From Bacteroidaceae bacterium (GTDB lineage: Bacteria; Bacteroidota; Bacteroidia; Bacteroidales; Bacteroidaceae), in contig JAGBTN010000021.1 of NCBI GenBank assembly GCA_017631315.1, positions 62,001-126,000 on the forward strand: a stretch of 64,000 nt of DNA, written 5' to 3'. Shown here in pieces: positions 9,593 to 53,635 of this stretch. Below the pieces are notes generated by a model. The model saw only the letters and a list, made by a program, of their open reading frames with translations, did no database searches and was not told the DNA's origin. Both the position numbers and the translations under genes were made by a program. Each line of letters opens with the position of its first letter. Positions within the stretch are counted from its first letter, which is position 1.

Positions 9593-11104
9593 ATGGATTT
9601 CAATAGAATTACAGCTGCCGAAGCCGCAGCCCTCGTCCAGAACGGACAAACCATCGGCCTGAGCGGATTCACACCCGCAGGCGCACCCAAGTGCACACCA
9701 GCAGAAATCGCCAAAAAGGCAGAAGCAGAACACGCTGCAGGAAGACCCTTCAAAATCAGCATCTTCACCGGTGCCAGCACAGGACAAAGCTGCGACGGCG
9801 AACTCTCCAATGCCAACGCCATCGACTTCCGTGCACCATACACCACAAACGCAGACTTCCGCAAACACGTCAACCAGAATCAACTCAACTACTTCGACTA
9901 TAACCTCTCCAACATGGCCACACAAATACGCCAAGGTTACCTCGGAGAAGTCAACTGGGCCATCATCGAAGCATGCGCCATCGAGAAGGTAGGCAACAAA
10001 GCACACATATATCTCACCGCCGCAGGCGGCATCAGCCCAACCGTGTGCCGCCTCGCCACAGAAGGCATCATCGTGGAGCTCAACGCATTCCACAGCCCTA
10101 ACAGCAAAGGCATACACGACGTCTACGAAATAGAAGACCACCCCTTCCGCCAGCCCATCATGATAACCAAGGCAAGCGACCGCATCGGCAAACCCTACAT
10201 CGAAGTCGATGCCGACCGCATCGTAGGCGTAATCGAATGCAACGTCCCCGACGAAGCACGCGCCTTCAAAGACGCCGACCCCATCACAACACAGATCGGA
10301 CAGAACGTGGCCGACTTCCTTCTGCTCAACCTCAAGAAAGGACTCATACCAAAAAGCTTCCTCAATCTGCAGAGCGGCGTAGGCAGCGGAGCAAACGCAG
10401 TGCTCGGCGCACTCGGACAATGCCCGGAAGTACCCAACTTCAACATCTACACAGAAGTCCTTCAGGACGCCCCCGTCGGACTCATGAAACAAGGACGCGT
10501 CCTCTCAGCATCAACCTGCTCACTCACCGTAACCAACGAATGTCTCCTCGACATCTACGATAACATCGACTTCTTCAAAGACAAACTCGTGCTGCGACCT
10601 TCCGAAATCAGCAACAGCCCCGAAGTAATCTCACGCATCGGTGTATGCGCACTCAACACAGCCATCGAGTGCGACATCTACGGCCACGTCAACAGCACAA
10701 AGATTTGCGGCACAAAGATGATGAACGGCATCGGCGGCTCAGCCGACTTCGCTGCAAACGCATACCTCACCATCTTTACCTGCGGCTCAACAACAAAGGG
10801 CGGAGCCATCTCCAGCATCGTACCCTTCGTCAGCCACATCGACCATACAAACCACTACATCGACGCAGTTATCACCGAATACGGCGTGGCAGACCTCCGT
10901 CATAAGAGCGACATGCAGAAGGCAGCCGAACTCATCAAAGTGGCACACCCCGATTACCGACCCATGCTGCAGGACTACATGCGATACGCAGAAAAACGCG
11001 GCGGACAAACACAACACGAACTCTCTGCCGCATTCGCCATGCACGACACATTCATCCGCAAAGGAGACATGCGTCTCACCGACCTGGCAGAATACATTAA
11101 ATAA
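9593..11104 (+). CDS. Acetyl-CoA hydrolase/transferase family (succinate-type CoA transferase)
   Basis: The 503-residue protein belongs to the Cat1/AarC class I CoA-transferases, which move CoA between succinyl-CoA, acetate and related acids. N-terminal LSGFTPAGAPK is the start of the CoA-binding half. The C-terminal half has GIGGSADFAANAYLTIF, and the run ending DAVITEYGVADLR contains the Glu-Tyr-Gly-Val-Ala-Asp signature. In anaerobic Bacteroidales such an enzyme fits succinate, propionate and acetate fermentation. Third positions are strongly biased to C and A. It has its own promoter; recJ follows after 21 bases. Confidence 0.92.
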   Translation: MDFNRITAAEAAALVQNGQTIGLSGFTPAGAPKCTPAEIAKKAEAEHAAGRPFKISIFTGASTGQSCDGELSNANAIDFRAPYTTNADFRKHVNQNQLNYFDYNLSNMATQIRQGYLGEVNWAIIEACAIEKVGNKAHIYLTAAGGISPTVCRLATEGIIVELNAFHSPNSKGIHDVYEIEDHPFRQPIMITKASDRIGKPYIEVDADRIVGVIECNVPDEARAFKDADPITTQIGQNVADFLLLNLKKGLIPKSFLNLQSGVGSGANAVLGALGQCPEVPNFNIYTEVLQDAPVGLMKQGRVLSASTCSLTVTNECLLDIYDNIDFFKDKLVLRPSEISNSPEVISRIGVCALNTAIECDIYGHVNSTKICGTKMMNGIGGSADFAANAYLTIFTCGSTTKGGAISSIVPFVSHIDHTNHYIDAVITEYGVADLRHKSDMQKAAELIKVAHPDYRPMLQDYMRYAEKRGGQTQHELSAAFAMHDTFIRKGDMRLTDLAEYIK

Positions 11105-41720: not shown

Positions 41721-41794
41721 GGACTTGTAGCTCAGTTGGTTAGAGCAACAGACTCATAATCTGGAGGTCCTTGGTTCAAGCCCAAGCTGGTCCA
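41721..41794 (+). tRNA. tRNA with CAT anticodon (elongator Met or lysidine-modified Ile)
   Basis: The 74-base cloverleaf has an acceptor 5' strand GGACTTG, D arm GCTC/GAGC, anticodon stem CAGA/TCTG with CAT at 41755-41757, T arm CTTGG TTCAAGC CCAAG, and discriminator A. CCA is not encoded. A CAT anticodon serves Met or, after lysidine modification, Ile (AUA). The gene sits at the left edge of the AT-rich island and may be its attachment site. Confidence 0.95.
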
Positions 41795-41806
41795 CTTTAA
41801 AAATGA

Positions 41807-41833
41807 AGCAGTTACGATCGTAACTGCTTTTTC
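41807..41833 (+). terminator. tRNA terminator, perfect 22-base palindrome with T-run
   Basis: AGCAGTTACGA and TCGTAACTGCT form an uninterrupted inverted repeat (41807-41828) followed by TTTTTC, 12 bases after the tRNA. Confidence 0.8.
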
Positions 41834-41976: not shown

Positions 41977-42270
41977 CTAATCAACAGCTTGTAGCATTTT
42001 TGTTTGGGCTACTTTAATAGCCTCTAACTTAAACTCATCTTCTCCTACAACAGCATCCATGACTTTATCCGCGACCCAAAGGGTGAGAAGTTCTTTTTCG
42101 TCAATATTGAAATAGTTAGCGATTTGAATAACTTGCGTACGTTTTGCACGTCTATCACCTCTTTCGATTTTTGAAAACATGGGAGTATCTATTTCCAGAA
42201 GAGAGGCTAATTGTCTTTGTAATACACCATTCTCTAACCTTAGTTCTTTTATCTTTTGTCCTAACAACAT
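41977..42270 (-). CDS. XRE-family transcriptional regulator
   Basis: The 97-residue protein has an N-terminal helix-turn-helix (GQKIKELRLENGVLQRQLASLLEIDTPMFSKIERG) and a short C-terminal helical tail. It is the last gene of the six-gene minus-strand run of the island, 25 bases after the AlbA_2 gene. In Bacteroidetes islands such small XRE proteins are often autoregulators or control adjacent restriction or defence genes. No operator was identified. Confidence 0.85.
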   Translation of the reverse strand: MLLGQKIKELRLENGVLQRQLASLLEIDTPMFSKIERGDRRAKRTQVIQIANYFNIDEKELLTLWVADKVMDAVVGEDEFKLEAIKVAQTKMLQAVD

Positions 42271-42295
42271 CTTATGTTCTTTTTTAATGGTTAAA

Positions 42296-43861
42296 CTATC
42301 CTATAATTTCCCAATGACCTGTTTTATCAGAACCAACACGCTTTATGATGCCTTGTTCTTGAAGTCGCTTCATTGTTTCAGCAATCCAACTTCTTGAATA
42401 ACCTGTTTGCTTTGCTAGTTCTGTCAAGGTATATTGTGGGTTGATGTGTATTTTTTCCAATATTTTGAGTGCACTTTTCGGTACACTTTGCAGTCTACTT
42501 TCGAGTCCACTTTGTAGTCCAGTTTTGAGTACACCTCGTTTTGAAGCTTTCAGTGAACCATCTTTATGTGCAATGTCAGCAATAATATTTCCTGCTGCTT
42601 CGTGACAAGGAATAGTTATTCTAAAGAAAGTACGTTCATCGTCTGTAACTACTGTAGCCCTGGGTGAACCATTGTTTTCTAAAACATTTTGGATTGTTGG
42701 AATACCAGTACTGCGACCTTCTGTCAAATCCAGTTCTTTCAGATATTCGCCAAGTCTGCGATTACGATAGCGTTTGGACACAAGAATCTCACATTTTGAA
42801 ATATCAGCAGCAGAAATACTTCTATCAGGACCACCTACATTCTGAATGGTAATTCCTTGAGGTTCTACTGTGATAACCACAGGCTCCCATTCACGATAAT
42901 CTCTATGATAAAGAGAATTTGTCACACTCTCCTCCAATGCTTGGTATGGATAGGTAAAGAACTTTTGGCTTCTGCTACTATCTTTAAGTTTAATTATCGT
43001 CTGCATCACAAGCATGCGATTCAAGTATTCCAATGTCCTATCAATTATCTGGGTGATGGAACCCTTAATTATAGGGCCTTCATATAAGTTGTTGGGATTG
43101 TTTAACCGCCCTTCAGGAAAATATACCACTTCAACTTGTGTGCGCTTAAAGAATTTGCTAGGGTCTTCACAGAACATCATAGCTGCTACATTTCTGAGCA
43201 TACGATTTTCCTTAGGGCCAACATACAGATCCATTTGCTCTAATAAACTTTCGAGAGGTTTTGTATATAGTTCATTGGCAAGTTTGCTACCTACCTTCAC
43301 CAAATATTCTCGTAACAATAGCGTTGAAATATCCTCTATCTTAATATCTGGATTTCCACGTTCATCAAATGGCACACGACTTGCCAATTCACGAAGTTCG
43401 TCAAGGACTTCACCCTTAGCAATAATGCTGCTCGTGCCACTACGAACATAGAAATATTCCTTTGTGTTACTCTTGGCTGTTACGTTCTCTGGTACAGAAT
43501 ATGGGCGGTTGATTCCTGCTGGACACCATATTACAAGCACATACTTCCCATCCACCTCCTCAACGCTAGTGCGAGGCATATAGTAAGGTGAAATCTTGTT
43601 GTTGTAACCTACCATATCTTGAAGGATGCCATCTATCTTTTCTGTAGGTATGCCTTCAACCGGACGAATAGCAACTCCTGTTGCCTCGTCTGTATCAACA
43701 CCAACTACGATGTAACCACCTCCAAGATCGTCAAAGTCATTAGCGAAAGCACATAAGCTATGGTATATACTCGCTGGATTCCAACCCTTCTTGAATTCAA
43801 TCCGGTTGGATTCTATCTTTTGCTTGTTCAGCAGGTCATTTATGTTTATTGCAAGTGCCAT
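42296..43861 (-). CDS. AlbA_2/Schlafen-like, RecG-like divergent ATPase protein with winged helix
   Basis: 521 residues. Residues 1-150 are an AlbA_2 (Schlafen-like) domain: ESNRIEFKKGW, FANDFDDLGGGYIVVGVDTD. Residues 250-410 match the HATPase_c_4/RecG-like region (EESVTNSLYHRDYREWEPVVITVEP, then GRSTGIPTIQNVLENNGSP). The C-terminus is a winged helix (TLTELAKQTGYSRSWIAETMKRL). A linker at about 445-465 is made of 4-residue repeats (GLQS GLES RLQS). These proteins are common in mobile and defence loci; a nucleic-acid-sensing or regulatory role is inferred. It is 36 bases downstream of the DprA-like gene. Confidence 0.85.
   Translation of the reverse strand: MALAININDLLNKQKIESNRIEFKKGWNPASIYHSLCAFANDFDDLGGGYIVVGVDTDEATGVAIRPVEGIPTEKIDGILQDMVGYNNKISPYYMPRTSVEEVDGKYVLVIWCPAGINRPYSVPENVTAKSNTKEYFYVRSGTSSIIAKGEVLDELRELASRVPFDERGNPDIKIEDISTLLLREYLVKVGSKLANELYTKPLESLLEQMDLYVGPKENRMLRNVAAMMFCEDPSKFFKRTQVEVVYFPEGRLNNPNNLYEGPIIKGSITQIIDRTLEYLNRMLVMQTIIKLKDSSRSQKFFTYPYQALEESVTNSLYHRDYREWEPVVITVEPQGITIQNVGGPDRSISAADISKCEILVSKRYRNRRLGEYLKELDLTEGRSTGIPTIQNVLENNGSPRATVVTDDERTFFRITIPCHEAAGNIIADIAHKDGSLKASKRGVLKTGLQSGLESRLQSVPKSALKILEKIHINPQYTLTELAKQTGYSRSWIAETMKRLQEQGIIKRVGSDKTGHWEIIG
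42470..42529 (-). repeat. 12-base tandem repeat in the AlbA_2 gene
   Basis: Five 12-base units of the form TCCACTTTGTAG (plus strand) code a 4-residue repeat in the linker before the winged helix. Copy changes would keep the frame. Confidence 0.75.
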
Positions 43862-43897
43862 ATATTAAATAATTTCAACTCTACATAATGCATGTTA

Positions 43898-44860
43898 CTA
43901 AAAAGGGAAACAGCCATTAACGTCTTTCTTCTTTAGTTCATTTATAATAATATCGTAATCTTGTAAAGAATGAATGGGAATCAACTTCTTTATATAAATG
44001 GATGTGTTTTTTTTAACGTCACACATCTTGGCAACACCTTCTATACCTAGCATATCAAAAGTTCGGTTTGCAGAAAAATTTATGTCTGAATCATATTCTT
44101 TATTACCAGTAAAAGAAATATAACCAACGATTCTATTAAGTTTTGAAAAGGCTTTAATTGTATATTTAGAACCACCGTCAATTGAACTTTGAATAAGTAT
44201 CAAGGCCGAAGATAGGCCAGCTTGAATACGACTCGCTTTACTGCCAGAAAACAGATCTTCTTTTTTATCAGGTTCGACTTCGGAAATAAGCAAACCATCT
44301 TCTTTCAAAACTTTTTCAGCTAACTCACATGTTATCCTAGATGATGTATGACGGAAATTAAGTCCTCCAGACAATATCCCTATGGTATTTCTAAATACTG
44401 TATCTCCATTTTCAACAGAATGTCTATCTATGCCATCGACAAGACCGTTACAAAGAGCATTATTAATAGAAAAGTACGCGCCAACTTTATTTGCAATACT
44501 ATTTGCTAGAGTCGTAGATTTTCTTGTCCCTATTAATGATATTATATCCTTATTTAGCAATGACATATTTCCTCGCAGATATAACACTGCAGGCGGATTG
44601 CTTAGTTCTCGAAGTTTACTTGGGTATTCAGTATGATATATAGGGAGTATGTGAATGTCTAAATCTTGACATCTTTGTATTACCCTATCAGCCCACTCCA
44701 AGTGTTCAGAAACTAATTCCTTCGTGATTTTATCATTGATTTTTACAAGATAATTTATAATCTCATCTGTATTATTTGAGTTGAATACTGAAACATTCTT
44801 TTTTATAAAAGCATCAGCTATTCCAGAAATCTTGCTTAAAGCTAATAATATCCGTATCAT
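43898..44860 (-). CDS. DprA/Smf-like Rossmann protein (candidate ShosA-like component)
   Basis: This 320-residue protein resembles DprA: a pre-domain ending YPSKLRELSNPPAVLYLRG (79-97), the SLOG/Rossmann start ISLIGTRKST (107-116), GLVDGIDRHSVENG (139-152), GILSGGLNF (161-169), LISEVEP (191-197) and RIQAGLSSALILIQ (211-224). The canonical basic ssDNA-binding residues of housekeeping DprA are partly changed (VSGxARGID is here NGLVDGID). It lies 1 base from the HAD-phosphoribosyltransferase gene. A DprA-like protein next to a phosphoribosyltransferase is the layout of the ShosTA toxin-antitoxin/defence pair, where the DprA-like protein is the antitoxin. The gene is very AT-rich. Confidence 0.8.
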   Translation of the reverse strand: MIRILLALSKISGIADAFIKKNVSVFNSNNTDEIINYLVKINDKITKELVSEHLEWADRVIQRCQDLDIHILPIYHTEYPSKLRELSNPPAVLYLRGNMSLLNKDIISLIGTRKSTTLANSIANKVGAYFSINNALCNGLVDGIDRHSVENGDTVFRNTIGILSGGLNFRHTSSRITCELAEKVLKEDGLLISEVEPDKKEDLFSGSKASRIQAGLSSALILIQSSIDGGSKYTIKAFSKLNRIVGYISFTGNKEYDSDINFSANRTFDMLGIEGVAKMCDVKKNTSIYIKKLIPIHSLQDYDIIINELKKKDVNGCFPF

Positions 44861-44861
44861 A

Positions 44862-46145
44862 TTAATCTATGTTTTCTATATAACCACATCCGTCTCCACC
44901 AAATTGCGGTGGTTGGCATGAATAAAATTTAGAACCTTTTCTCCTGTTAGTTTTAATTACTAAAGGTTTTCCGCATCTAGGACAGATTTTATCATCTAAA
45001 ACTAATAGTGTCATATAGAACAATGTCACAATCAAGATATTTCCAACGTTTTGTTCTTCTAATTTCTTCCTAATTTCAAAAGCTGTTGCTCCTGTAGTTA
45101 ATTGATCGTCCAAAACTATTATATTTTTTCTTTCTAAAGAAGTGTCAAAATTCTTTATGTGAAGATGAGAGCGAATGAAAGACTGTCTTGCCTGGTAGTC
45201 TTTTTCATTTCTAAGAGATGAAGTCATATTTTCATCCCATTCAAACAACTTTACTTTAGGTATAGATGTGCTTATTAAATCAAATATTTCTTTTAACTTG
45301 TTAGGCGGAGTTGTTGAAGACTTATCTGACACATAGGTAAAATAATCCCACTTATAAGAATTAATTTGTTGTAGCCCTTGTAAGTAGTTCTCAACACCTT
45401 TTGCCATAATTGTTAAATCTTCATTTTTCCTTTGGGGATTATCTATCTGATAATACAAATCGGCTTTTGAGAATTTGTCGCAAGAACCGTTTTCTTGTCT
45501 AGCCAAGCACCGAAAGGCAACAATCCGTTGATGTTCCCTATCTCTATAATCCCAAAATTTGACAGATTTACACGTGATTCCACCAATAGATGCGGCTTCG
45601 ATGGATAATAAATTCCCCTGTCTGTTTGAGACAATATTTAGAAGTTCTTGATAACTTTTCGTAATAAATGTCGGGCCATATTTTATAATGCTTCGATAAT
45701 CACCGATACCATCAGTTTCCGAGAATTCACCTTCTGTATATAACTGAATATACGAAGTAAGTATTTTTAGTTTACGTCCTAATTGTATATCTAAAACGCT
45801 ATCGCCAATAATCATAAAATCTTCTTTATTAGTCTTATATAAATTATCAAGATTTACATCTGATTGAATGAATGATAACGTCTTTGCAGTATTTGGTTTG
45901 TCTGCTAAATATAAATATTCTACATTGAAATAGTATTCAACAATAGGACGTACATATTTGGGATGAGAATCAGACAGGATAATAACTCTATGTCCTTGAT
46001 TTTTCAATGTTGAAATAAAATCTACCGAACCATGGAACAAAGGAATTTGAGTTGGATTAAAATCCCGCAACCCATCTTTAAATTCCTTGTACTTCACATC
46101 AGCTGTGTGAGTTAATGTGCCGTCTAAATCTACAAAAACTATCAT
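44862..46145 (-). CDS. HAD phosphatase-phosphoribosyltransferase-zinc ribbon fusion (candidate ShosT-like component)
   Basis: 427 residues in three parts. Residues 1-130 are a HAD domain with catalytic DLDGT (6-10), Ser58 of motif II in ILSDS and GDSVLD (114-119). Residues about 180-380 are a type I phosphoribosyltransferase domain with the PRPP-binding loop VLDDQLTTGATA (344-355). Residues 388-420 are a zinc ribbon with Cys388, Cys391, Cys410 and Cys420, like topoisomerase C-terminal zinc fingers. All key HAD and PRPP residues are present, so both activities are plausible. Next to a DprA-like gene this fits a toxin or effector working on nucleotides or nucleic acid; the substrate is unknown. 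Confidence 0.85.
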   Translation of the reverse strand: MIVFVDLDGTLTHTADVKYKEFKDGLRDFNPTQIPLFHGSVDFISTLKNQGHRVIILSDSHPKYVRPIVEYYFNVEYLYLADKPNTAKTLSFIQSDVNLDNLYKTNKEDFMIIGDSVLDIQLGRKLKILTSYIQLYTEGEFSETDGIGDYRSIIKYGPTFITKSYQELLNIVSNRQGNLLSIEAASIGGITCKSVKFWDYRDREHQRIVAFRCLARQENGSCDKFSKADLYYQIDNPQRKNEDLTIMAKGVENYLQGLQQINSYKWDYFTYVSDKSSTTPPNKLKEIFDLISTSIPKVKLFEWDENMTSSLRNEKDYQARQSFIRSHLHIKNFDTSLERKNIIVLDDQLTTGATAFEIRKKLEEQNVGNILIVTLFYMTLLVLDDKICPRCGKPLVIKTNRRKGSKFYSCQPPQFGGDGCGYIENID

Positions 46146-46159
46146 TTTTAGATTTATTA

Positions 46160-47944
46160 TTAAGACGTTAATAATTTGTCAATATTACTCTCGATAATAT
46201 TTTTATTTCCTAAACCATGTTCTGTGTCAGGTATATATATACTCTTTTCTTGTTTCAGCATTTCTAAATACTTTCTTACATTCTTATCAAGAGTGTAACA
46301 ATCTAAGACATACTTGTCTACAATGATGATAGTGTGTTCTTTTGCACGACTTGTAGCAACATTAAATAGATGTGGTTCTAGTGTTCTAATGTAGGAATAG
46401 TCCGGTACAAAAAAAATTGTTATATCCGTTGTCAATCCTTGTACTCTAGCAACTGTATCTACTATAAGATTCTTTTTGCTTCCTACTTTTTGAGTTATAG
46501 CCATCTGTAGGGCGCGAGCCGTCTTTTTCATACAAGATAAAACAGCAATGTCTTTATTCGGAGAATCATTTAATATACTTGCCACAATGTATGATGCCAT
46601 ATATGTTGCAAATTGAGGAGTACTATCACCAGATGGCATATCTGTTAGAATAAGGGTAGGTCCTCCTTTATTGCTCAATATTTTGCACATTGACGGCAAA
46701 TCATTAAATCTTTTAGATTCATTAGACACAAGAGAGTCGTTGTAGAAAACACCTGTATAGTTCGCACTTCTTTGTCCAAATCTATAAGTGGTTGTTAATT
46801 GATAGATTGGGGATGAACTATTATCTGCCAATAATTTTAGTCCTTCTACCAAAGGCTTGTAATTACAAAATTTAATTCTATCTTGATTCAATATGACTAT
46901 TGGAGATAATTGGTGGATATCACCAACCCATAAATTCTTTTTACCAATTTTGCGACTTGCTGCAAACATGGGAAGTATAGCTTGGCTTGCTTCGTCCATT
47001 ATAACAAAATCAAAAGGTTGTTCAACTGTCAAATCTGCCGCATATCCACTTGTGATGAAATAAGTGGACATCACCAAACATCCTGGCATTGGAGCAATAG
47101 ATTTGATTGTTCCCAAATCTTTGATTTCTCTCAATTCATCAATTGCGATATTTGTTTTAAATATCTTGTGATTATGTAGTAATGGTTTGACTGCAGGCTT
47201 TTCTGCAATTTCCGTTAAGGCTCGATTGGTTAAGGCTGTAACTAACACTGAATGCCCCTCTGCACATAGTCTTGCACAGAGTTCTGCAATCATATATGTC
47301 TTGCCAGTTCCAGGAGGACCTTCCAAGATCATTGTGTCCGTCAATGTCATCTGTGAATACACAAAGCCGGAAACATTATCTTGTTTTATAAGGATTGGCT
47401 CCCAATCTTTTGTCTGGTAGTTAGCATCAAGTACAGAAGCAACTCCTTTGCTATATTTATCCTCTACAACCTTTTGTAAGTTCATAATATAGTCAATAGG
47501 AGGACGTTGTGGAGCAAAGGTCAATACGATATTTGGTGTCTCTTTGATATAATTTGCAAAATCAACACTTACCTTAGAGAAACCTACTAAAGAATATCGA
47601 GGGTCATTGGCTGGAGAATCCCAAATACATACGCATTCGGTAGAATTATATCGTGCGTTATACAAATCACGATATGTCTTGTCTCCCCAATTACGGTAAT
47701 CTTGTAATTCTGGTGGAAGAACCATACATACTAGGAAATCACCCTTTCTCGGTAATGCGCGCGAAATAGGGAATTTCATTATCATTTCTCCATCCTTAAA
47801 AGAAATGAACTGAGCCACATACATCTCCTGACTTGTTTTAAGCAAGGAGATGGCTGTGGTTAAGTATGTCTTTTTGAACTCCTCTGTTTCAGCTTTAAGC
47901 TCATCTTCGAGGAATTGCCAATGCTTTTTTCTATCGATATTCAT
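46160..47944 (-). CDS. SF1 (DNA2/Upf1-like) helicase
   Basis: 594 residues. An N-terminal domain of about 190 residues precedes the helicase core: Walker A GPPGTGKT (209-216), VTALTNRAL (Ia), Walker B VIMDEASQ (Asp317, Glu318), GDIHQLSP (motif III, 341-348), ARVQGLTTDI (motif V) and VATSRAKEHTIIIVD (motif VI). This is the Upf1-like group that opens DNA or RNA. It lies 7 bases after the giant ATPase gene and 14 bases before the HAD-phosphoribosyltransferase gene, so it is probably part of the same operon. Confidence 0.9.
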   Translation of the reverse strand: MNIDRKKHWQFLEDELKAETEEFKKTYLTTAISLLKTSQEMYVAQFISFKDGEMIMKFPISRALPRKGDFLVCMVLPPELQDYRNWGDKTYRDLYNARYNSTECVCIWDSPANDPRYSLVGFSKVSVDFANYIKETPNIVLTFAPQRPPIDYIMNLQKVVEDKYSKGVASVLDANYQTKDWEPILIKQDNVSGFVYSQMTLTDTMILEGPPGTGKTYMIAELCARLCAEGHSVLVTALTNRALTEIAEKPAVKPLLHNHKIFKTNIAIDELREIKDLGTIKSIAPMPGCLVMSTYFITSGYAADLTVEQPFDFVIMDEASQAILPMFAASRKIGKKNLWVGDIHQLSPIVILNQDRIKFCNYKPLVEGLKLLADNSSSPIYQLTTTYRFGQRSANYTGVFYNDSLVSNESKRFNDLPSMCKILSNKGGPTLILTDMPSGDSTPQFATYMASYIVASILNDSPNKDIAVLSCMKKTARALQMAITQKVGSKKNLIVDTVARVQGLTTDITIFFVPDYSYIRTLEPHLFNVATSRAKEHTIIIVDKYVLDCYTLDKNVRKYLEMLKQEKSIYIPDTEHGLGNKNIIESNIDKLLTS

Positions 47945-47951
47945 TATTCAG

Positions 47952-50900
47952 TTAATCAATAAATGATGTACCAACTGATGGTGCCTGTGTATCATTTGCA
48001 GGTGCATCGAATATGTCGCGTGCGTTACCTTCATTAACAGCTTCCATTGCAAGAGAATAACCAACAGTACTTTTTACAGGAGGTATGTTCCTTCCATAAT
48101 TGTACATGTTAGCAATTTGAGGAATGTTTTGATCACACACCTCTTTTATAGACGTAATGCATTTGCCCAGTTTCTCAGGAACATAGTCAAATAGGATAGG
48201 AGGATCCTCCTCCTTGAATCCATGTGGCATGTTGTTACCAAATTCAAAGCTCAACGTTGAATACTGTTTACTAACTGCAGCCAATGTGAGCAATGCTGCT
48301 CTGTTCTCGTTTGACATGTCATTGCTGATTGAAATATTGATGTTACGAACAGGAAGAGCATACAAGGGAATATTTTGCAAACCTGTTACTGTGAGGACAA
48401 ACAGCATAGAACCTTTCAGAGAAAGCAGTTGCCAGTCATACCAGTTAAGGTCAAAATATCTATACTGAGGACCTTTGTAACTGTGTACAACAATAGGAAT
48501 CATATTACCATGACGATCGGAGATACCATAGAGCTGGCTATATGAATGTCTTGCAATTTTTTCGTTGTCAAATTGCAAGCCCAAATCATGTTTTTTATCC
48601 AATTCTCTGAAATACTTAACCACAGCGTCTTTGGCTTCTCCAACATAGCGTTCAATCTCCTCCAGAGAAAGACCTGCATATTGATCCTGATCTGCTCTTA
48701 CGATATGAGTATGACCTTCGAAATCCACAACTTCTTCAATTTCATGGGTCTTAGGTACAATGACAAGATCAGTAGAATCTTCACCTCCAGCAGATGCTTG
48801 CTCGCTTGCAAATTTGTTGACAATATCCTTAACTTGGTCAAGTTTATCAGGTGGACAGTTCTTTAAGACTGCATTAAGATTTTTCAAGTCCTCGACAGAC
48901 GTTTCTACAAGGAAATCCTTAACCGCTCTGATTTTTTCATCTCCCTGTTGTACGATTGCACCTACGAGATCCAATGTTTCACCTTCTCCCAAGGACCACA
49001 CGATAAGAGAGTTCTTTGTTTCTTTGAAGTACTTCATAATATCTTCAAGTCCTGCAACATTATTGCAGAGCTTACCGACAGTAAACACGAGTGAACGGAA
49101 ATCGTTATCTTGTTTATTACCATCATACTCTCTAATCTTAGTATCAATAAACTCACCTATTTCTGAAAGAGTGATAGGTTCTGTCTCTAAGTATGAAGCA
49201 TATTGTGAGTCCAAAGTGAACAGAGATTCTCTAAAGTCATGATTAACATGACAATTAGTAGCGGCAATGTCCTTAATCTCTGGTGGAATATTGTCATCCC
49301 TTCTAACGTCTTGGAACTTACAGAAATTATTGTTCTGATTGAGCCATATTCCAATGCCAGAATCTTTATCTTTTATAATGCCCCAATACTTCTTGCCCTT
49401 ATAGCTATGCAGAAAATCAATCAAAGAATCAATCCAGTGAGTTAACTCGACCTCACTGCAACTAGCAAATGCGCTGTTGAGTCCTTTGAAATTCTGTATA
49501 TTTTCGGAATAAGCTATTCTATTGCATATATACTTGATGTAAAACTCTTGTGCAAAACCCCAGTTGAATCCAGAGTGATTCTCTACATATTTTGCTTCGC
49601 CAAACGTATGGTCAGATATGCTTTTTGCAAAATTATAAAGTTTATTCTCTTCTGGCTCACAGTTTTCTTGACGAATAAGAATTGATATTGTATGACGAGC
49701 AATAGCTTCCTTGGTGCTATCGTTTGCTTCGTCAAATCTCTTTTTTGTATATTCGTATATATCCTTTATTGACAACGGATTCTGCTGCTCGTAGCCCTTT
49801 ATCGTTCTATGGATTAACTGATGACGATATACATCGACAGGGCTAAATGGATTATATGCAACATTCGCCAAGTCTTTGAACTCTTCAGGAATGTCATTGT
49901 CATAACGTAATTCTGAAAGCTTCTTCAGGTTTAGCTGCTGATTTGGGAAAACATCCTGCTCCTTAATCAAATCGCCATGAGAATGGTCGCGATAGAATTG
50001 GATGTATTTATCCAGCCAAGATAATGTTTCATCATCAGTCTTTGCTGTTGTAAAGAAAGAAGATGCAACATTTGCTACAGTACTCTTAGAAGATATACCT
50101 GTATAACTATTGTTGAACCAATAATTATCAGACTCTTTCCACAAATCCAATTCTGTTGTATCAATAAGTGTATATTGGCTCATTGTTCTATATGCCGAAC
50201 AGAAATCATAAATTGATTTTCTGTTGTTAAGCACAGTTGCATCTGTGGTATTTGGGTATAATGCTAAGATGCTATATGCTACCTTTGAACGTACGTCAAG
50301 ATAAGAACCATTCTTATATATATTAGTACCATTTTTAACATATTCATTCAACTTGTCAATCATCTCTTTCAAACTGAAAGATCGAAGTGTATTTCCAAAT
50401 ACAGTGGCTTCAACATCTGCATCCATCAGCACATGTTGTACTGTAGCGTTGTCTTGGTTTACAGAGTTGTATATATCTTTGAGTATAGCTGGAATACGAG
50501 AACTATGGTCAGAATAAAGTTCCTTCAGTAGTTTAAAGTCACCTCGCTGATTTGGAATGATGGCATAATTGTCGAATTCAATGAGCATATTTTGATCAAC
50601 GAGGAACTTGTAAACCTGATTAAGCCAAGTAATTGTATCTTCGCGTGTTTTTCCTATCTTTGAAGTAAGAGTATTTAAATTCTGAAGATCTGATAAGTCT
50701 TTCAGAAAATCTTCTTTCTCATACTTTAGTTTAGTACCCCATGCATCATATTCAGGACGAACTACATCAAGCCATCCATGAAGATGCTTGAGCACAGGCA
50801 GAACACCACGACCAATGTATTGGCCATGTAACAAGTTATAGAAGGTTTCATTAACCTCCTTTGTCGATGTAGGCGTGAATGAAGGAACAGACAGGTTTAC

Positions 50901-52166
50901 CAGCAAATCTGTTCCATTGTCTGTTTCTACAAGTCTTTCCTGGAGTAGTTGTCTTCTCCAGTTAGTTTGCAGATTCTTGATCCAAGGTGCAGCTACGCTT
51001 TCGCTGTATTCTTCTGAAGATTTAGGGATTCGAGAAGATGCCAACAAATATCTGTTGGTTGCATTCTTTGAAATCAGCCATTCGTTAAACTTCAAAACTG
51101 CATCGACAGCCTTATCAACGATAATTCTATTCGCAATACAGTTTGGATGGTCTGCACTATTGAGAAGGAGTCCATTACGTCTCTCTGTAGGATTGAACTC
51201 AAATCCATTAAGAGTGTAAGGAAAATAGAATTTTTCCGAACCAATCAGAGGAAAATCACGATACAAAACAGGCTGTTTGCTGTCTCGTTTGATAATTTCG
51301 TAGATACCATCCTCTATGTTTACTTCTGTTGTAAGAGCTACCTCATCAGTTATGTAACTCAGATATTTCTTTGTAATATCATCAATTTTTACAACTGACA
51401 ACTGAACATTGTCCCCAAGAGAGGTCGAATCGCAGGTGTAAACCACATTAGTGCCTTTTACACGATCAATTACACGTACTTGCTTAATCTTCTTAGACTG
51501 AGTAACCAGTGTAATTGGCATTGTGTTTATCAGGTCTTCAAGACCGGCAACAGCAGATTCCTGTTTCTCCTGTGTGGTTAAATGATATGTGAATACAGTG
51601 TCAAATGACTGTTCTGTTCGATTCAGCTCATAATTGTTGACAACCTCATAAGCTGTTTCGATATGACGGAGTTCTTCAAGGGTTGTTTCTATTCTTGGAA
51701 GTAGGTCTTCTGAACGATAACCACTTCTATCAAGTACAATCTTGAAGCGTCTATCGATGCCCATATATCTAACAATACCCTCTACATCAATGATGTCAGA
51801 CAATAAGTGTGTACAGATAAAGCCTGTACCAAACTTACCTGTCTGACCTTCAAGATTCTGTGAATCCTTTGAACTTACTTGCTGAACAAGTCCGGTAATA
51901 TTCTTTGTGCTGAAACAATCTCCATTGTGTCGGAATTTCAGTGTGTCTTGGGAAACCAGCTCGATTTCAACTGACACTTTTCCAAAACGGTTAGGAACGT
52001 CTTTAGCATTCTGCAAAAGCTCCCATACCCAACGCTTAGCGGAAGCAGATGGTTCTTCACTAATTTGTGAAAGTAATTGAAAAATCTTATCAGCAGTAAG
52101 TTTATAATTGTTATACGCAATTTCGTCATCTACTGTCATTGGCTTAGTTGTATCCTTCATATACAT
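47952..52166 (-). CDS. Giant sacsin-like GHKL (Hsp90-type) ATPase
   Basis: 1404 residues; the ATG at 52160 is an equal start candidate. Residues 20-230 form a GHKL ATP-binding domain: WELLQNAKD (48-56, the N box with the metal-binding Asn53), FRHNGDCF (the D-x-G box equivalent) and GQTGKFGTGF (107-116, the lid glycines). This arrangement is found in sacsin-type N-terminal ATPases. The remaining 1150 residues are mostly helical with no motif I can name, apart from a conserved-looking ending near YSQLYGISDRHGN. It is the first gene of the operon, with a promoter box at 52204-52211. Large GHKL ATPases of this type occur in several defence loci; a sensor or scaffold role is inferred. Confidence 0.85.
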   Translation of the reverse strand: MYMKDTTKPMTVDDEIAYNNYKLTADKIFQLLSQISEEPSASAKRWVWELLQNAKDVPNRFGKVSVEIELVSQDTLKFRHNGDCFSTKNITGLVQQVSSKDSQNLEGQTGKFGTGFICTHLLSDIIDVEGIVRYMGIDRRFKIVLDRSGYRSEDLLPRIETTLEELRHIETAYEVVNNYELNRTEQSFDTVFTYHLTTQEKQESAVAGLEDLINTMPITLVTQSKKIKQVRVIDRVKGTNVVYTCDSTSLGDNVQLSVVKIDDITKKYLSYITDEVALTTEVNIEDGIYEIIKRDSKQPVLYRDFPLIGSEKFYFPYTLNGFEFNPTERRNGLLLNSADHPNCIANRIIVDKAVDAVLKFNEWLISKNATNRYLLASSRIPKSSEEYSESVAAPWIKNLQTNWRRQLLQERLVETDNGTDLLVNLSVPSFTPTSTKEVNETFYNLLHGQYIGRGVLPVLKHLHGWLDVVRPEYDAWGTKLKYEKEDFLKDLSDLQNLNTLTSKIGKTREDTITWLNQVYKFLVDQNMLIEFDNYAIIPNQRGDFKLLKELYSDHSSRIPAILKDIYNSVNQDNATVQHVLMDADVEATVFGNTLRSFSLKEMIDKLNEYVKNGTNIYKNGSYLDVRSKVAYSILALYPNTTDATVLNNRKSIYDFCSAYRTMSQYTLIDTTELDLWKESDNYWFNNSYTGISSKSTVANVASSFFTTAKTDDETLSWLDKYIQFYRDHSHGDLIKEQDVFPNQQLNLKKLSELRYDNDIPEEFKDLANVAYNPFSPVDVYRHQLIHRTIKGYEQQNPLSIKDIYEYTKKRFDEANDSTKEAIARHTISILIRQENCEPEENKLYNFAKSISDHTFGEAKYVENHSGFNWGFAQEFYIKYICNRIAYSENIQNFKGLNSAFASCSEVELTHWIDSLIDFLHSYKGKKYWGIIKDKDSGIGIWLNQNNNFCKFQDVRRDDNIPPEIKDIAATNCHVNHDFRESLFTLDSQYASYLETEPITLSEIGEFIDTKIREYDGNKQDNDFRSLVFTVGKLCNNVAGLEDIMKYFKETKNSLIVWSLGEGETLDLVGAIVQQGDEKIRAVKDFLVETSVEDLKNLNAVLKNCPPDKLDQVKDIVNKFASEQASAGGEDSTDLVIVPKTHEIEEVVDFEGHTHIVRADQDQYAGLSLEEIERYVGEAKDAVVKYFRELDKKHDLGLQFDNEKIARHSYSQLYGISDRHGNMIPIVVHSYKGPQYRYFDLNWYDWQLLSLKGSMLFVLTVTGLQNIPLYALPVRNINISISNDMSNENRAALLTLAAVSKQYSTLSFEFGNNMPHGFKEEDPPILFDYVPEKLGKCITSIKEVCDQNIPQIANMYNYGRNIPPVKSTVGYSLAMEAVNEGNARDIFDAPANDTQAPSVGTSFID

Positions 52167-52303: not shown

Positions 52304-53635
52304 TCACCGTTTTCGTCTAGGGGTAGTCAGATTATTATCATTCTTCTTCTCTCCCCATGGCATATCAGATGATGAACCACCTCCACCTGTTCCAACATGA
52401 GTTTGTGTAGGGCCACCTGAAAGCATCTCAAATGTGGCCCCGAGAAGCAGGGCTTGAATCTGGCTCACTTGATCAAACGGCTCAAGGATTTCATTGACTA
52501 GTTCATATTCGGTAAGCTCACCATTCAGATACTTTTGTATAACAGGATTGTACCACTCGAAATACTTCGCCTCCTCAAAGGTCTCATTTCCCACCTTAGT
52601 TTGAATGTGAAGGCTTGGTATGTTTGAATGGCGAGGCGACATGCGAATACCTGTGAGCGTTGCACCTGATGACAGGCGATATCGATGCGGATTGGCCTTT
52701 CTGTCAAGTGTGTCAATACGCTGTTTCTGTTTTTCTATGCTAGCTTCGTGAGCAATGTTCTTTCGCTCGGCAACTTCAGCTCGTTTGATAGCCTTGTCAA
52801 TCTCCTCCATATAACCATTGCGATATTTCGCTAGTTCTGCCTTATGTTGCTCCTTTAGTTGTAGTAGTTCTTGTTCTAATTGAGCTATGCGTTGCTGTAA
52901 CTTTTCTATCTGCTTGTCCTTATCCGATAGTTTTTTCTTTGCTTCGGCCAAATCTCCCGTACCGAAGAATGACAATATCTTTGAACGTCCTTCACGTGCC
53001 TTTTCAACTTCTGCCTGCAATCTCTCTATATCATCTTCGTATTTCATCATCTGCTCACGATAGTGTTGGCTGTTAGTCTTATGTCTAGCAGTAGAACCTA
53101 CTACACCACGTTGCAATCCGAAAGGCTTCATAGCAATTGCATAGGTGTTTTGATAATGGAACAATTTGCCACGAGCCATCACGTCATCTGCGGATAATCG
53201 TGGTCCACTTTTGGTTGCATATTTCTTGTCACCCTCACGCTCCTTGCGTCTGCGCTCTGTGGTCACGATAGGTATAATGGTGGCATGTAGGTGGGGTGTC
53301 TTCTCATCCATGTGCAGCACACACGATACTAGGTTCTCTTCGCCGAATGTATCTTTGAGCCATGATAGATTGGCCTTGATCCATTGGTCAAGTTTACCTT
53401 CACGCTGAAGCTTCATCATCTGCTCATGCGTTCCTGTCAAGATGATACGTATAGTCTTGGTCTGATTCTTACCGACCTTTCGGTGTAAACCTGCATGGTC
53501 TATACGATACTGAATAGCCTCGGTTCTGTTAGCAACTCCTTGCGAAAATTTTATCAGTTCCCGATTCAGGTGTGTCCGCTTTGCATCGGCATTATCCGAC
53601 TCGGTAGCCCAAAGGTGTGGGGAGTCTATTAATTT
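52304..53635 (-). pseudogene. MobV-type relaxase, 5'-truncated remnant
   Basis: The open frame has the MobV signature HMDEKTPHLHATIIPIV (His-x-Asp-Glu-x-Thr-Pro-His-x-His) and a long coiled coil rich in Lys, Glu and Gln. In frame upstream of the first TTG start the protein continues ESDNADAKRTHLNREL, the usual sequence about 30-40 residues into Bacteroides MobV proteins, back to about 53608. There it stops: the start codon and the first conserved stretch are missing and the fucosidase gene begins. The gene is therefore cut at its 5' end by the island junction. MobV nicks oriT for mobilisation; without its N-terminus it is probably inactive. Confidence 0.8.

What the first reader, a model, noticed from the sequence alone, without database searches (positions are those of the whole stretch)
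41977..52166. Six-gene island operon not matching a known defence system
Seen: a sacsin-like GHKL ATPase, SF1 helicase, HAD-phosphoribosyltransferase-zinc ribbon, DprA-like protein, AlbA_2/ATPase-winged helix protein and XRE regulator lie on one strand with gaps of 7, 14, 1, 36 and 25 bases. The block is AT-rich beside the flanks: the line at 44761 has 16 G+C in 60 bases, the line at 10201 has 36 in 60. It is bordered by a tRNA and a broken relaxase. Known: each family recurs in anti-phage or mobile loci. Inferred: a composite anti-phage or stress system, with the giant ATPase and helicase as sensor or processor and the DprA-phosphoribosyltransferase pair as effector and control.
Basis: partly seen in the sequence, partly recalled or inferred. 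Interest (0 to 1): 0.85.

Follow-up and report, generated by a model that had tools for sequence, protein, structure and literature searches.

The report
Stacked bacterial defence gene cassette
This is a cluster of probable anti-virus genes in a Bacteroidales bacterium, built from separate modules, whose main part pairs a giant Hsp90-like protein with a helicase, and in related genomes the giant's front part appears to be swapped while its tail stays with the helicase.

Summary
The six genes, coordinates, gaps and AT-rich island are confirmed. They are not one conserved six-part system but three modules in one apparent transcription unit.

(1) A giant sacsin-type GHKL ATPase plus SF1 helicase. 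In 16 of 16 loci with a full-length helicase of this family (window included) the helicase directly follows such a giant; all 16 giants match TmtA (Tiamat) models.
(2) HAD-phosphoribosyltransferase-zinc ribbon plus DprA, a ShosTA-type pair known from a plasmid and a Pf phage; lowest G+C; in 1 of the 16 loci.
(3) AlbA_2/ATPase/winged-helix protein plus XRE regulator; in 3 of 16.

New in module 1: across the 16 loci the giant's C-terminal domain tends to be inherited with the helicase, while the ATPase front is exchanged in several lineages (trees conflict). The domain is in 6 of 6 helicase-paired giants outside its training set and 3 of 36 others, all three beside an AAA_21 ATPase. It may be a dead PD-(D/E)xK fold (weak evidence).

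My reading: an exchangeable sensor docked to a fixed helicase, with an inserted ShosTA cassette. Anti-phage function is inferred, not shown.

The parts
48915..52166 (-). GHKL giant, residues 1-1084: sacsin N-terminal ATPase (aa 44-128) and variable middle; the proposed exchangeable front
   Evidence: NF047352 70.7 bits, PADLOC TmtA 4e-165 over aa 11-675; identity to L133 about 50% in the ATPase region and about 28% at aa 551-1080
47952..48914 (-). GHKL giant, residues 1085-1404: C-terminal domain that tends to be inherited with the helicase; possibly an inactive PD-(D/E)xK-like fold
46160..47944 (-). SF1 (Upf1/IGHMBP2-type) helicase, partner in module 1
   Evidence: AAA_11/AAA_12; nearest solved chains by sequence DNA2, SMUBP-2, UPF1; directly 3' of a GHKL giant in 16 of 16 loci
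44862..46145 (-). HAD - phosphoribosyltransferase - C4 zinc ribbon protein, ShosT-type
   Evidence: same architecture as a Psychrobacter plasmid protein, 26% identity; a Pf phage homologue of that protein (35.5%) is labelled ShosT by its depositor
43898..44860 (-). DprA-like protein, ShosA-type
   Evidence: PF02481 9e-30, ShosA 8.5e-34
42296..43861 (-). SLFN_AlbA_2 - HATPase_c_4 - winged-helix protein
   Evidence: an AlbA_2/HATPase_c_4 protein, only 22-23% identical, holds the place directly after the helicase in L133 and L137
41977..42270 (-). XRE regulator of a family found in many Bacteroidales genomes, often in front of restriction-type genes
   Evidence: 66-67% identity to the XRE of L133 and L137; contexts
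52304..53635 (-). MobV relaxase remnant, N-terminus missing
   Evidence: NF041497, frames upstream; related Mob genes in front of the giant in L133 (58%) and L137 (31%)
41721..41795 (+). tRNA-Met(CAT) at the island edge, with a terminator-like hairpin readable on both strands at 41805-41830

Best explanation
The island is a remnant of a mobilisable element carrying three stacked modules read from one strand. The core is a two-gene unit: a giant Tiamat-like GHKL ATPase and an SF1 helicase. I propose that the front of the giant (ATPase and variable middle) senses infection and is swapped between lineages. Its C-terminal domain, possibly a dead nuclease-like fold, docks the helicase that stays with it. 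ATP-driven closure of the giant then licenses the helicase to act on invader DNA or RNA. Between helicase and AlbA_2 a ShosTA-type cassette (HAD-PRTase toxin restrained by DprA) has been inserted as a second-line growth-arrest module. The AlbA_2 and XRE genes act as operon regulators or accessory parts. Shown here: gene order, recurrence of the giant-helicase pair, tree conflict between front and helicase in several relatives, the C-terminal domain following the helicase in those cases (one of them undecided), the different composition of the cassette. Inferred: sensing, docking, helicase target, toxin action, insertion event, anti-phage outcome.
For: 16 of 16 loci with a full-length helicase have it directly 3' of a giant, and so does L257 from the giant-side census. 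All 16 giants carry the sacsin ATPase and match a TmtA model. Helicase identity correlates with C-terminal-domain identity (rho 0.45, Mantel p 0.001), not with ATPase identity (rho 0.02, p 0.40). Trees: the helicase groups L134+L056 (100/98) and L139+L140 (100/100), both rejected by the ATPase (p-AU 5e-66, 3e-6). The ATPase groups L137+L138+L140 (100/99), rejected by the helicase (1e-5) and the C-terminal domain (3e-5), and L136+L056 (99/99), rejected by both (0.015, 0.001). C-terminal domain in 6 of 6 helicase-paired giants outside its training set; in 3 of 36 giants without the helicase, all three beside an AAA_21 ATPase. L133 and L137 have helicase-AlbA_2-XRE with no cassette between; cassette G+C 0.324-0.325, the lowest of the island. 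HAD-PRTase+DprA pairs on a Psychrobacter plasmid and a Pf phage. The PRTase of RqlH is toxic and restrained by DprA-like RqlI (PMC4670107, abstract and passages); DprA+PRTase protects against T7 and lambda (PMC9122126, passages).
Confidence: 0.55

Rival explanations
1. One integrated six-gene system: giant ATPase and helicase sense, the DprA-PRTase pair executes, AlbA_2/XRE control.
For: Tight spacing on one strand; the only - strand terminator-like sites lie inside the giant gene (48198-48214) and past the last gene; shared AT-richness.
Against: HAD-PRTase+DprA was not found in the other 15 helicase loci (L134 and L140 are cut soon after the helicase) and occurs without the giant elsewhere. 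L133 and L137 run helicase-AlbA_2-XRE without it. The cassette has the lowest G+C.
Confidence: 0.1
2. Independent defence systems piled up in an island and sharing a promoter, with no coupling even between giant and helicase beyond co-transcription.
For: Defence islands commonly stack systems (general knowledge). The XRE family stands in front of many other genes, and giants exist without the helicase.
Against: Helicase-giant adjacency in 16 of 16 loci, and a giant domain whose ancestry follows the neighbouring gene in several cases. A fused giant-helicase exists in L282.
Confidence: 0.17
3. The C-terminal domain tracks the helicase only because recombination tracts happen to end there (gene conversion or hitch-hiking), not because the two proteins dock.
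For: In the window/L133 pair the near-identical block starts abruptly at about residue 1100 and runs to 46 bases before the helicase stop, as one recombination tract would.
Against: The pattern recurs in separate pairs (L134/L056, L139/L140), and the domain is found with the helicase and rarely without it.
Confidence: 0.13
4. The unit serves the mobile element itself (stability, entry exclusion or DNA maintenance) rather than protection against phage.
For: Mob relaxase genes stand before the giant in the window, L133 and L137.
Against: The giant and the DprA/PRTase pair match catalogued anti-phage families, and a DprA+PRTase system was tested against phage (PMC9122126 passages). A type I restriction R subunit gene follows the helicase in L145 and a TOTE-conflict gene follows XRE in L133.
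Confidence: 0.05

Closest known systems
Tiamat (TmtA)
   Same: The giant matches PADLOC TmtA (4e-165) with the same sacsin-type GHKL head.
   Different: The best match covers only aa 11-675 of 1404 (model 7-657 of 1063). This branch has a distinct C-terminal domain and an adjacent SF1 helicase; Tiamat as I recall it is a single gene. A paper passage lists Tiamat among systems of unknown mechanism (PMC10482375).
ShosTA / DprA-PRTase / RqlHI / PsyrTA
   Same: HAD-PRTase-zinc ribbon next to DprA, as on a Psychrobacter plasmid and on Pf phage PfAC02a, whose depositor names them ShosT and ShosA.
   Different: Embedded in a larger operon behind a GHKL-helicase pair; only 26-31% identity to the plasmid pair. 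In RqlHI the PRTase is fused to a RecQ-type helicase (PMC4670107).
Mokosh (MkoA)
   Same: The helicase core resembles MkoA (1e-22).
   Different: No second Mokosh gene was recognised; the neighbour is a GHKL giant. The composition of Mokosh is recalled, not tested.
GHKL giant + AAA_21 ATPase (+ TOPRIM-like) loci
   Same: Giants with an adjacent AAA_21/AAA_15-type ATPase (L064, L065, L066, L069) carry, in 3 of 4, a distant relative of the C-terminal domain.
   Different: The partner ATPase is SMC/OLD-like instead of a helicase.

Membership tests
Tiamat | TmtA-type GHKL ATPase | tested here: met
   PDLC03967 4.4e-165; NF047352 above cut-off
Tiamat | Full-length TmtA architecture | tested here: inconclusive
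   Best stretch covers aa 11-675 of 1404 and 7-657 of 1063 model positions
Tiamat | Acts as a single gene (recalled definition) | not testable with these tools
   A helicase is directly adjacent in 16 of 16 loci of this branch, but whether it is needed requires an experiment
Tiamat | Protects against phage | not testable with these tools
   No assay
ShosTA | PRTase toxin-type protein (ShosT) | tested here: met
   ShosT 1.7e-6 (weak), PRPP-loop stretch LDDQLTTGAT read in the sequence (motif recalled); HAD-fused ShosT named on PfAC02a
ShosTA | Adjacent DprA-like ShosA | tested here: met
   8.5e-34, gap of 1 base
ShosTA | Toxin-antitoxin behaviour and phage protection | not testable with these tools
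   Only literature on relatives
Mokosh | MkoA-type helicase | tested here: inconclusive
   1.1e-22, best stretch at model 784-1099 of 1112
Mokosh | Mokosh partner domain or gene (recalled) | tested here: inconclusive
   No other protein of the island matched a Mokosh model at E <= 0.01
Conserved six-gene system | The six genes recur together in order | tested here: not met
   HAD-PRTase+DprA in 1 of 16, AlbA_2+XRE in 3 of 16 helicase loci
PD-(D/E)xK fold (C-terminal domain) | Core fold | tested here: inconclusive

The most novel reading that the evidence does not exclude
Bacteroidota carry a two-gene innate immune system with plug-in sensors. Giant Hsp90/sacsin-type ATPases are exchanged between genomes as whole recognition fronts, while a C-terminal dead-nuclease adaptor and its SF1 helicase stay together as the constant signalling half. 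More generally, Tiamat-type giants are sensor hubs that couple through their tails or neighbours to different partners (SF1 helicase, AAA_21 ATPase, AlbA_2 proteins with TIR or HEPN domains), so 'single-gene Tiamat' would be an incomplete description.
Probability: 0.42. Interest if true: 0.78.

Novelty: new variant of a known kind. Interest (0 to 1): 0.55.

Why it matters
A passage in the literature I read lists Tiamat among systems of unknown mechanism (PMC10482375). This locus and its relatives give a testable partner and a testable docking domain, and split the giant into an exchangeable half and a constant half. That turns an orphan giant ATPase into a sensor-effector problem open to chimeras, pull-downs and cryo-EM. 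It also suggests that ShosTA cassettes can be added inside an existing defence operon.

Tried and rejected
Single-protein searches of viral contigs with the HAD-PRTase and with the helicase found no relative; the helicase alignment found one distant helicase (L213). The HAD-PRTase had no plasmid match and only partial matches in two phage records. Its search of 247 Bacteroidales genomes gave 6 with a match including its own; the other five were partial.

Empty-site test: ribF-side flank homologues in G251 and G254, but the G251 contig ends at the tRNA and in G254 different genes follow. The glycosidase matched in 11 of 12 same-genus genomes at paralogue-level identity (up to 40% near full length; one 203-residue piece at 50%). 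The insertion is therefore not proved by an empty site. No convincing att-like direct repeat. Bacteroides-type promoter pattern (recalled consensus): 9 matches in the window, of which one inside the giant gene and two between ribF and the tRNA, none in front of the operon. Sigma-70-type scan: 40 found, 43 expected. Rfam: only the tRNA.

The structure model of giant residues 1-1084 has pLDDT 46 and was not used. P0003 has no match in solved structures at E <= 0.01. Foldseek on the C-terminal model gave nothing at E <= 0.001. Families missing from the VIA list are not excluded.

Rows dropped before counting. 'Full-length helicase' means a match covering the family profile from its N-terminus. 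Left out of the 16: three order-search helicases (L060-L062) that match the motor part only and have no giant next to them; fragments L142 and L143, also without an adjacent giant. The other 67 of the 80 genome-contig loci gave no full-length hit to the family profile, which was built from the 16 themselves; their neighbourhoods were not read. L136 carries its helicase in two frames; only the first piece was used, unjoined. L257 is a 17th full-length case from the giant-side census, and L270 a contig-cut one; neither is in the 16. Of the 36 giants without the helicase, several are short or contig-cut, so absence of the tail domain there is a weak negative. Small loci returned by the genome search (L001-L055, L072-L121, L214-L255, L285-L314) were not read one by one.

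On re-checking the calls I added the congruent tree pairs and the low C-terminal identities in the Against line, and lowered the main confidence from 0.58 to 0.55, the novel case from 0.45 to 0.42 and interest from 0.56 to 0.55, raising the recombination-tract rival from 0.10 to 0.13.

Literature: searches (open-licence PMC only). In the titles, abstract starts and passages I saw, no helicase partner of Tiamat is named; the listed papers were not read through. Passages were read from PMC9122126, PMC3710099, PMC4670107, PMC12629846 and PMC10482375. The original Tiamat/Mokosh/ShosTA system paper is recalled, not read.

Full report
Observation. The six reading frames exist exactly as described, on one strand, with gaps of 7, 14, 1, 36 and 25 bases, in an AT-rich block of 0.33-0.40 G+C. 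On one side is a tRNA-Met(CAT) at 41721-41795. On the other is a MobV relaxase whose frame is open back to 53635, directly behind the stop codon of a glycosidase gene, so its N-terminus is missing. The window lies in a 2.68 Mb draft genome. No clean empty site could be shown.

What each gene is. Pfam, NCBIfam and PADLOC give: a giant with a sacsin-type GHKL head, matching TmtA (Tiamat) at 4e-165 over aa 11-675; an SF1 helicase of the AAA_11/AAA_12 type, weakly MkoA-like, whose nearest solved relatives by sequence are DNA2, SMUBP-2 and UPF1; a HAD-PRTase-zinc ribbon protein (ShosT 2e-6); a DprA-like protein (ShosA 9e-34); an AlbA_2-HATPase_c_4-winged-helix protein; and a small XRE regulator. 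Likely ATPase motifs are kept: E49, N53, G110, G113 and G115 of the giant are invariant in 16 giants, and GPPGTGK and EASQ of the helicase in five aligned relatives. Among solved structures the giant profile finds sacsin and TRAP1 (Hsp75) ATPase domains.

Does the six-gene block recur? Not in what I could search. An order-wide search of 247 genomes found four more full-length helicase relatives, in G163, G215, G158 and G035; the tally of 60 of 247 at E <= 0.001 includes many partial motor-domain matches. Three motor-only helicases (L060-L062) have no giant beside them and are counted as another family. A profile scan of genome contigs kept 80 loci, of which 11 hold a full-length helicase (L133-L141, L144, L145). 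With the window that makes 16 loci. In all 16 the helicase lies directly 3' of a giant. All 16 giants match the sacsin ATPase model and at least one TmtA model; 3 of 16 also match S1 RNA-binding domains. After the helicase, AlbA_2+XRE follow in 3 of 16 (window, L133, L137) and HAD-PRTase+DprA in 1 of 16 (window); L134 and L140 end soon after the helicase. L133 is the nearest relative (helicase 87% overall) and runs Mob, a short ORF, giant, helicase, AlbA_2, XRE, then a TOTE-type primase-helicase.

The cassette. HAD-PRTase-zinc ribbon next to DprA is a recurrent pair: on a 6.2 kb Psychrobacter plasmid (same architecture) and on Pseudomonas phage PfAC02a, where the depositor labels it ShosT and ShosA. 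A HAD-type gene lies next to DprA on a Priestia plasmid and on rhizobial plasmids. A PRTase follows DprA in phage phiOH2. On enterobacterial plasmids HAD matches fall on genes annotated as DprA or RecQ-type helicase. In the window the pair has the lowest G+C of the island (0.324-0.325). I read it as a ShosTA-type cassette inserted between helicase and AlbA_2. In E. coli RqlHI the PRTase domain is toxic and DprA-like RqlI restrains it (PMC4670107, abstract and passages). A DprA+PRTase system protects against T7 and lambda (PMC9122126, passages).

The striking part. Against L133 the giant is about 50% identical in the ATPase region, about 28% at residues 551-1080, then about 90% from residue 1101 to the end; DNA identity stays near 85% from there through nearly all of the helicase. 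The same shape appears in two more pairs: L134/L056 (about 20%, then 55% in the last 200 residues, helicase 66%) and L139/L140 (mostly 17-41%, then 55-57%, helicase 53%). Over the 120 pairs of the 16, helicase identity correlates with the C-terminal 220 residues (rho 0.45, Mantel p 0.001) and not with the ATPase (rho 0.02, p 0.40) or the middle (rho 0.07, p 0.31). ATPase and middle go together (rho 0.47); ATPase and C-terminus correlate weakly (rho 0.21, p 0.02).

Trees. The helicase joins L134+L056 (100/98) and L139+L140 (100/100), both rejected by the ATPase (p-AU 5e-66, 3e-6). The ATPase joins L137+L138+L140 (100/99) and L136+L056 (99/99); the helicase rejects these at 1e-5 and 0.015, the C-terminal domain at 3e-5 and 0.001. 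The C-terminal tree supports L139+L140 at 100/100 but does not decide L134+L056 (p 0.39) or L134+L135 (p 0.24). Against a general rule of exchange, window+L133 and L137+L138 are sisters in all three trees, and L145+L058 in the ATPase tree and weakly in the helicase tree. So exchange of the front is shown for some relatives, not for the window's own pair. Also, when helicases are only 45-56% alike, the C-terminal domain is often near 20-25%. The clades were picked after seeing identities.

Other partners. In a class sample (30 of 395 genomes over the family cut-off) I fetched 29 loci beyond the window and one already held. Two have the helicase next (L257, L270); in two the giant overlaps an AlbA_2 gene, fused to HEPN in L261 and to TIR in L265. 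The XRE family is common in Bacteroidales (58 of 247). In 15 of 17 fetched contexts my gene calls recovered it, in many in front of genes whose starts look like methylases or other restriction genes; that reading is by eye.

Mechanism proposed. (a) The front of the giant senses infection: inferred from variability and exchange. (b) ATP-driven closure is passed to the helicase through the C-terminal domain: co-inheritance shown in part, contact inferred. (c) The helicase acts on invader DNA or RNA: inferred; S1 domains in three giants hint at RNA. (d) The ShosTA cassette arrests growth if DprA meets foreign single strands: inferred from relatives. (e) AlbA_2/XRE regulate: inferred.

Verdict. 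Real and composite, with signs of mobility; not a new six-gene system. The pair in its core is a new variant of a known kind (Tiamat-like), with a modular sensor/effector split that I did not see described in the listings and passages I saw.

Noticed in passing
L064:8282-13590, L065:773-5770, L066:5842-11441, L069:3-5394: GHKL giants followed by an AAA_21/AAA_15-type ATPase and, in three of the four, a further small protein (weak DUF4276 or OLD-like TOPRIM match in the two scanned); OLD- or PARIS-like partners (recalled comparison) for Tiamat-type giants.
   Followed up: partly
L261:5311-8915 and L265:8744-12516: GHKL giants overlapping an AlbA_2 gene that is fused to a HEPN domain (L261) or a TIR domain (L265): AlbA_2 may be a recurrent adaptor of these giants.
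   Followed up: partly
L282:3810-9293: An 1827-aa protein fusing a sacsin-type ATPase with an SF1 helicase.
   Followed up: partly
L137:4431-9995, L138:4412-9994, L140:462-5537: Three of 16 helicase-paired giants match S1 RNA-binding domains, hinting at an RNA-linked trigger; the scan did not name which, and these three are my reading of their N-termini.
   Followed up: no
L133:13611-16749: The XRE gene is followed after 10 bases by a TOTE-conflict primase-helicase, so XRE may head the next module; in the window that next module would be missing.
   Followed up: no
L134:3266-3898 and L135:2608-3798: DuOB-domain genes shortly upstream of the giant in two loci, behind genes that by eye look like DUF488 (not scanned).
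   Followed up: no
L128:5127-7759: Deinococcus plasmid: one gene matching HAD at its start and DprA further on, behind two helicase genes and a hypothetical gene; another shuffling of the same parts.
   Followed up: no
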